From Blastocatellia bacterium (lineage in GTDB: Bacteria > Acidobacteriota > Blastocatellia > HR10 > J050): 64,000 nucleotides of DNA. Numbering within the stretch: position 1 is the stretch's first letter; each line of letters opens with the position of its first letter. Under the pieces are notes generated by a model. The model was not told where the DNA came from. It made no database searches and saw nothing but the letters and a program-made list of their open reading frames with translations. The stretch is from NCBI GenBank assembly GCA_026985075.1, contig JALSQX010000053.1:156773-220772 (forward strand), in the 5' to 3' direction. Below, piece by piece: positions 8,528 to 9,109 of this stretch. The position numbers and the translations under genes are program-made.

Positions 8528-9109
8528 ATGGCCTGGATCAAGACGATTCCGCCAGAGGACGCTGAAGGATTGCTGAAACAGCAATATGACGCAGCCATCA
8601 AACGAGCCGGACGCATCTTCAATATCGTTCGTGTTCAGAGCCTGAACCCGCGCGTCCTGGAGGCCTCGATTGGCCTGTATAAAGCGATCATGTTCGGACC
8701 ATCGAGTCTGACGCGCGCCCAGCGAGAGATGATCGCCGTCGTCGTCTCCAAAACGAACGACTGTTTTTACTGAACGGAAGCTCACGGGGAGGATCTCCGT
8801 CAGGTCACCGGCGACGACCGTTTAGTGGAACAGATCAAGACGGATTATCGACGGGCCAATCTCGATGAGCGTACGCGGGCCATGCTCGATTATGCCGTCA
8901 TGATCACCCGAGATGTTCATCGTATCGATCAATCGACCATCGATCAACTGCGCGCTCGCGGATTGAGCGACGAAGATATCCTGAATGTGGCTCACGTAAC
9001 GGGGTTCTTCAATTACTACACGCGTCTGGCCGATGCGCTGGGCGTGGATCCGGAAGATTTCATGCTTCGGCGCCGATCGCCGGGAATGCACCAATCCAGC
9101 GAAACCTGA
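8528..9109 (+). CDS. Candidate selenoprotein: AhpD-like / carboxymuconolactone decarboxylase peroxidase-related enzyme with CxxU (TGA at 8771-8773)
   Basis: MAWIKTIPPEDAEGLLKQQYDAA..MIAVVVSKTNDCFY[TGA]TEAHGEDLRQVTGDDRLVEQIKTDYRRANLDERTRAMLDYAVMITRD..; TGA sits at the second Cys of the family CxxC; both halves in one frame. Confidence 0.85.
8784..8800 (+). promoter_or_regulatory. Putative bacterial SECIS element (AhpD-like gene)
   Basis: ACGGGGA-GGA-TCTCCGT, 7-bp stem with one G-U pair; loop starts GG 17 nt after the TGA. Confidence 0.6.

What the first reader, a model, noticed from the sequence alone, without database searches (positions are those of the whole stretch)
8528..9109. AhpD-like selenoprotein: UGA replaces the second Cys of CxxC
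Seen directly: ..MIAVVVSKTNDCFY-TGA-TEAHGEDLRQVTGDDRLVEQ.. is one frame (8528-9109) broken only by TGA at 8771-8773. Family knowledge: peroxidase-related AhpD/CMD enzymes have a conserved CxxC followed by xxxHG(E/A)L, so the TGA falls exactly on the resolving or peroxidatic Cys (CFYU). AhpD-like selenoproteins have been reported as a bacterial Sec family. A 7-bp hairpin ACGGGGA-GGA-UCUCCGU begins 10 nt after the UGA with a GG-starting loop 17 nt downstream.
Basis: partly seen in the sequence, partly recalled or inferred. Interest (0 to 1): 0.8.

Follow-up and report, generated by a model that had tools for sequence, protein, structure and literature searches.

The report
AhpD-like selenoprotein with UGA-coded selenocysteine
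An acidobacterium uses the stop codon UGA to place selenocysteine in the active site of a peroxide-handling AhpD-like enzyme; the evidence is strong, but this type of selenoprotein is already catalogued.

Summary
The observation and the interpretation both hold. Window 8528-9109 is one frame broken only by TGA 8771-8773. Read through, the 193-aa protein belongs to TIGR01926 ("peroxidase-related enzyme", AhpD/CMD fold). U82 falls exactly on the second Cys of CxxC, and all five AhpD proton-relay positions (E67, C79, Y81, U82, H86) keep the spacing seen in PA0269. The host genome (Acidobacteriota) has SelA, SelB, tRNA-Sec(UCA) and a SelD that carries its own in-frame TGA. At least 65 distinct homologues, from Acidobacteriota to Planctomycetota and Actinomycetota, have TGA at the same codon. 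The hairpin at UGA+10 meets every bacterial SECIS criterion. It is complete (7 bp) in 51 of 68 UGA sequences against 1.6 expected from synonymous recoding, and in 0 of 30 Cys forms, with compensatory changes. Codons after the UGA are under purifying selection.

It is therefore very probably a real selenoprotein gene, but of a known kind: "AhpD-like, TIGR01926, CxxU" is listed in a 2026 review, and AhpD-like CxxU selenoproteins have been known since 2005. The one loose end is a group of close relatives with Trp or Ser at the Sec site, possibly Sec-site decay by single substitutions.

The parts
8528..9109 (+). AhpD-like (TIGR01926, CMD fold) selenoprotein gene, 193 aa with Sec82; ATG start, TGA stop at 9107-9109
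   Evidence: start residue aligned with residue 1 of relatives
8771..8773 (+). in-frame UGA read as selenocysteine (U82 of C79-F-Y-U82)
   Evidence: same codon is TGA in 68 distinct homologous sequences and a Cys codon in Cys forms
8784..8800 (+). bacterial SECIS apical stem-loop: 7-bp stem ACGGGGA/UCUCCGU with GGA loop
8762..8785 (+). active-site codons C79-F-Y-U82-T-E-A-H86 (redox CxxU and relay His)
   Evidence: sequence compared with the proton relay published for PA0269

Best explanation
The gene encodes an AhpD-like, TIGR01926-family thiol/selenol oxidoreductase in an acidobacterium. Shown by computation: UGA 8771 sits at the second Cys of CxxC, a SECIS hairpin follows it, the Sec machinery is in the genome, and UGA and hairpin are conserved together. 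Inferred from established biology: SelB with GTP and Sec-tRNA(Sec) binds the hairpin and places Sec at the UGA. Inferred for the chemistry: the selenolate of U82, activated by the E67/Y81/H86 relay, attacks a peroxide (or an oxidised partner such as a peroxiredoxin) to give a selenenic acid; C79 resolves it to a selenenylsulfide, which a thiol donor then reduces.
For: TIGR01926 153.7 bits, cut-off 81.8, match running through the UGA. CMD Pfam 57.5 bits. PDB relatives such as 2pfx align with CFYC at the site. Proton-relay spacing 12/2/1/4 identical to PA0269. SelB 370.9 bits, tRNA-Sec 72.8 bits with anticodon UCA, SelA 577 bits, SelD 369 bits with an in-frame TGA at GAGUACK. UGA at the same codon in 68 distinct sequences over several phyla. 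Full 7-bp stem in 51/68 against 1.6 expected from synonymous codon resampling; Cys forms 0/30. Covariation reached by 0/500 shuffles, and far better pairing than slid versions. dN/dS after the UGA 0.066 against the congener and 0.10 against the same-family genome.
Against: No protein or selenium data. The single-sequence folding energy is unremarkable. Rfam has no matching family hit. 17 of the 68 UGA sequences do not form all seven pairs at this exact place. Substrate and reductant are unknown.
Confidence: 0.96

Rival explanations
1. The TGA is a real stop, or a sequencing error or pseudogene lesion in a Cys-type enzyme gene.
For: Gene callers would end the ORF here; some databases hold only the downstream half (for example P0085 and P0087, starting at MESHGED/MEAHGED).
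Against: The same TGA is found in independently assembled genomes; codons after it are under purifying selection; hairpin and UGA are conserved together.
Confidence: 0.02
2. UGA is read as another residue such as Trp, by suppression or a changed code.
For: Several close database homologues carry Trp at this position (P0001, P0004, P0006, P0007, P0013).
Against: The host has complete Sec machinery, and TGA also ends this gene's own frame at 9107-9109. The Cys alignment and the SECIS point to Sec. Trp relatives may simply have TGG, one step from TGA.
Confidence: 0.02

Closest known systems
AhpD-like selenoprotein, TIGR01926, CxxU (listed in PMC13188914, example MCB9421940.1)
   Same: Same family model, same CxxU motif, Sec at the second position
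   Different: A new gene copy in an acidobacterial genome; no difference in kind found
AhpD-like 1/2 and CMD-domain selenoproteins of the Sargasso Sea and GOS surveys (PMC1088965, PMC2398784)
   Same: AhpD/CMD fold, CxxU, bacterial SECIS
   Different: Filed there under COG2128 or pfam02627, from marine metagenomes; whether any is the same subfamily was not tested
NF041238 AhpD_rel_CFYUT
   Same: CFYUT motif and alkylhydroperoxidase-related
   Different: A 357-position model; this protein scores 70.3 bits against a cut-off of 175, so it is not a member
PA0269 and M. tuberculosis AhpD
   Same: Proton-relay residues, with spacing identical to PA0269
   Different: Cys instead of Sec; otherwise distant in sequence

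Membership tests
TIGR01926 peroxidase-related (AhpD-like) family | score above the curated cut-off | tested here: met
   153.7 against 81.8 bits
TIGR01926 peroxidase-related (AhpD-like) family | redox CxxC (or CxxU) with relay Glu and His | tested here: met
   E67, C79, Y81, U82, H86; spacing as in PA0269
NF041238 AhpD_rel_CFYUT | score above the curated cut-off | tested here: not met
   70.3 against 175 bits
bacterial selenoprotein gene | in-frame UGA aligned with a conserved Cys of homologues | tested here: met
bacterial selenoprotein gene | bSECIS: 3-9 nt loop, 4-16 bp stem, G in the first two loop positions, 16-37 nt from UGA, MFE at most -7.5 kcal/mol | tested here: met
   3-nt GGA loop, 7 bp, 17 nt, -13 to -14.1 kcal/mol for the 40-50 nt fold (model quoted)
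bacterial selenoprotein gene | selA, selB, selC, selD in the same genome | tested here: met
bacterial selenoprotein gene | Sec present in the protein | not testable with these tools
   needs 75Se labelling or mass spectrometry
AhpD-type peroxidase activity | reduces peroxides with a thiol donor | not testable with these tools
   needs an enzyme assay

The most novel reading that the evidence does not exclude
The subfamily shows exits from Sec use: some of the closest non-Sec relatives (Terriglobia and metagenome proteins) hold Trp or Ser, not Cys, at the Sec codon. Each can be one substitution from UGA, so a selenoenzyme may have lost its redox residue while the protein was kept for another role. 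If so, the family would be a test bed for what happens to selenoproteins after Sec loss other than Cys replacement.
Probability: 0.35. Interest if true: 0.4.

Novelty: new member of a known kind. Interest (0 to 1): 0.25.

Why it matters
It confirms one more selenoprotein gene that ordinary annotation cuts in two or leaves out, and shows that the TIGR01926 Sec form is widespread in Acidobacteriota, sometimes in several copies per genome. It also gives a clear case of a SECIS hairpin constraining the codons (HGEDLR, HAEFLR) just after the Sec. It does not open a new class.

Tried and rejected
Membership in NF041238 (CFYUT) was rejected by score. Rfam gave no hit in 8700-8900. ARAGORN finds no tRNA in the window; the tRNA-Sec lies on another contig. 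A first alignment script ignored locus strand and was redone. DNA for the Trp/Ser relatives was sought in 396 phylum genomes, 38 genomes of one class and 5 of another; only UGA forms came back, so the codon in those relatives is not known here. A scan for further read-through genes in the window by codon usage gave no other candidate with a Cys-like context next to the TGA. The tree of Sec and Cys forms has long branches and needs at least 3 changes, so the direction of change was not decided. A call with wrong coordinates for a paralogue failed and was not repeated.

Full report
Observation. The frame 8528-9109 (+) is open but for TGA 8771-8773.

Family. With the TGA read as Sec, the 193-aa protein matches NCBIfam TIGR01926 at 153.7 bits (cut-off 81.8), the match running across the UGA, and Pfam CMD. 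Solved relatives (2pfx, 3c1l, 2prr) have Cys where the UGA stands. The relay residues published for PA0269 (Glu36, Cys48, Tyr50, Cys51, His55; PMC3141380) correspond to E67, C79, Y81, U82, H86 with identical spacing. The model NF041238 (CFYUT) is not met (70.3 against 175 bits).

Host. The window's genome has SelB, tRNA-Sec with anticodon UCA, SelA and SelD, the last with its own in-frame TGA in GAGUACK. Its nearest public relative is a MAG named Acidobacteria bacterium J050, about 92% identical over this protein, so the host is an acidobacterium.

Comparison. In relatives and in public genomes the same codon is TGA in 68 distinct sequences and TGC/TGT in 30. TGA forms come from Acidobacteriota, Actinomycetota, Planctomycetota, Poribacteria, Abditibacteriota and Melainabacteria. 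Against the congener, dN/dS is 0.017 before and 0.066 after the UGA; against the same-family genome 0.07 and 0.10: the part after the UGA is selected as protein.

SECIS. At one fixed place after the UGA, 51 of 68 TGA sequences form all seven pairs, while resampling synonymous codons predicts 1.6; Cys forms 0 of 30. The main sequence classes are ACGGGGA-GGA-UCUCCGU and ACGCAGA-GUU-UCUGCGU, which differ by compensatory changes. On 42 of the sequences the structure count gives 95% of cells paired, covariation above all 500 shuffles, and 31-58% paired when slid; the 42 leave out some poorly pairing distant members, so the 51/68 figure is the fairer one. The loop begins with G in 62 of 68. The hairpin meets each rule of the bSECIS model in PMC13188914. 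The energy of the single sequence is not by itself significant.

Known status. PMC13188914 lists "AhpD-like protein, TIGR01926, CxxU". AhpD-like and CMD CxxU selenoproteins go back to the Sargasso Sea survey (PMC1088965) and GOS (PMC2398784). The finding is a new, well-supported member of a known selenoprotein family.

Mechanism. Sec insertion through SelB and the hairpin follows from established knowledge of bacterial Sec decoding and is not shown directly. The peroxide or disulfide chemistry is inferred from AhpD. That the C-terminal Cys of CxxC in M. tuberculosis AhpD (Cys133) is the peroxidatic one is my own knowledge; the paper read here says only that both are catalytic.

Loose end. Close non-Sec relatives P0001 and P0004 (CVYW), P0002 and P0005 (CVYS/CAYS), P0006, P0007 and P0013 (C[FH]YW) have Trp or Ser at the site; P0003 has Cys (CFYC). 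Their DNA could not be reached. For metagenome entries a gene caller reading TGA as Trp is possible; the Ser forms cannot arise that way.

Noticed in passing
8323-8348 and 8394-8419: Exact 26-bp direct repeat (TTGACCATCCCCTCGGAGTCCAGGCG), starts 71 bp apart, just upstream of the gene; found only here in the whole genome.
   Followed up: yes
L055 (G000:C73), L057 (G000:C52), L058 (G000:C80): Three paralogues in the same genome: two more with in-frame UGA (CHYU, CDYU; the latter about 290 aa with an apparent second CMD-like half lacking Cys) and one Cys form (CEYC).
   Followed up: partly
L018 (G000:C33:250191-251117): SelD of the host carries an in-frame TGA in GAGUACK, i.e. SelD is probably itself a selenoprotein.
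   Followed up: partly
P0001, P0002, P0004-P0007, P0013 (database proteins): Homologues with Trp or Ser instead of Sec/Cys at the active site, residues reachable by one substitution from UGA.
   Followed up: partly
L100 (Abditibacteriaceae contig JAFAZH010000015.1): A second UGA-containing AhpD-like stretch (CKYU) with a long frame before it on the same locus.
   Followed up: no
5490-7265 and 9151-10712: Neighbours: gamma-glutamyltranspeptidase upstream, an unassigned ORF and a GT9 glycosyltransferase downstream; order kept in the congener only, not seen in the short flanks held for more distant relatives.
   Followed up: partly
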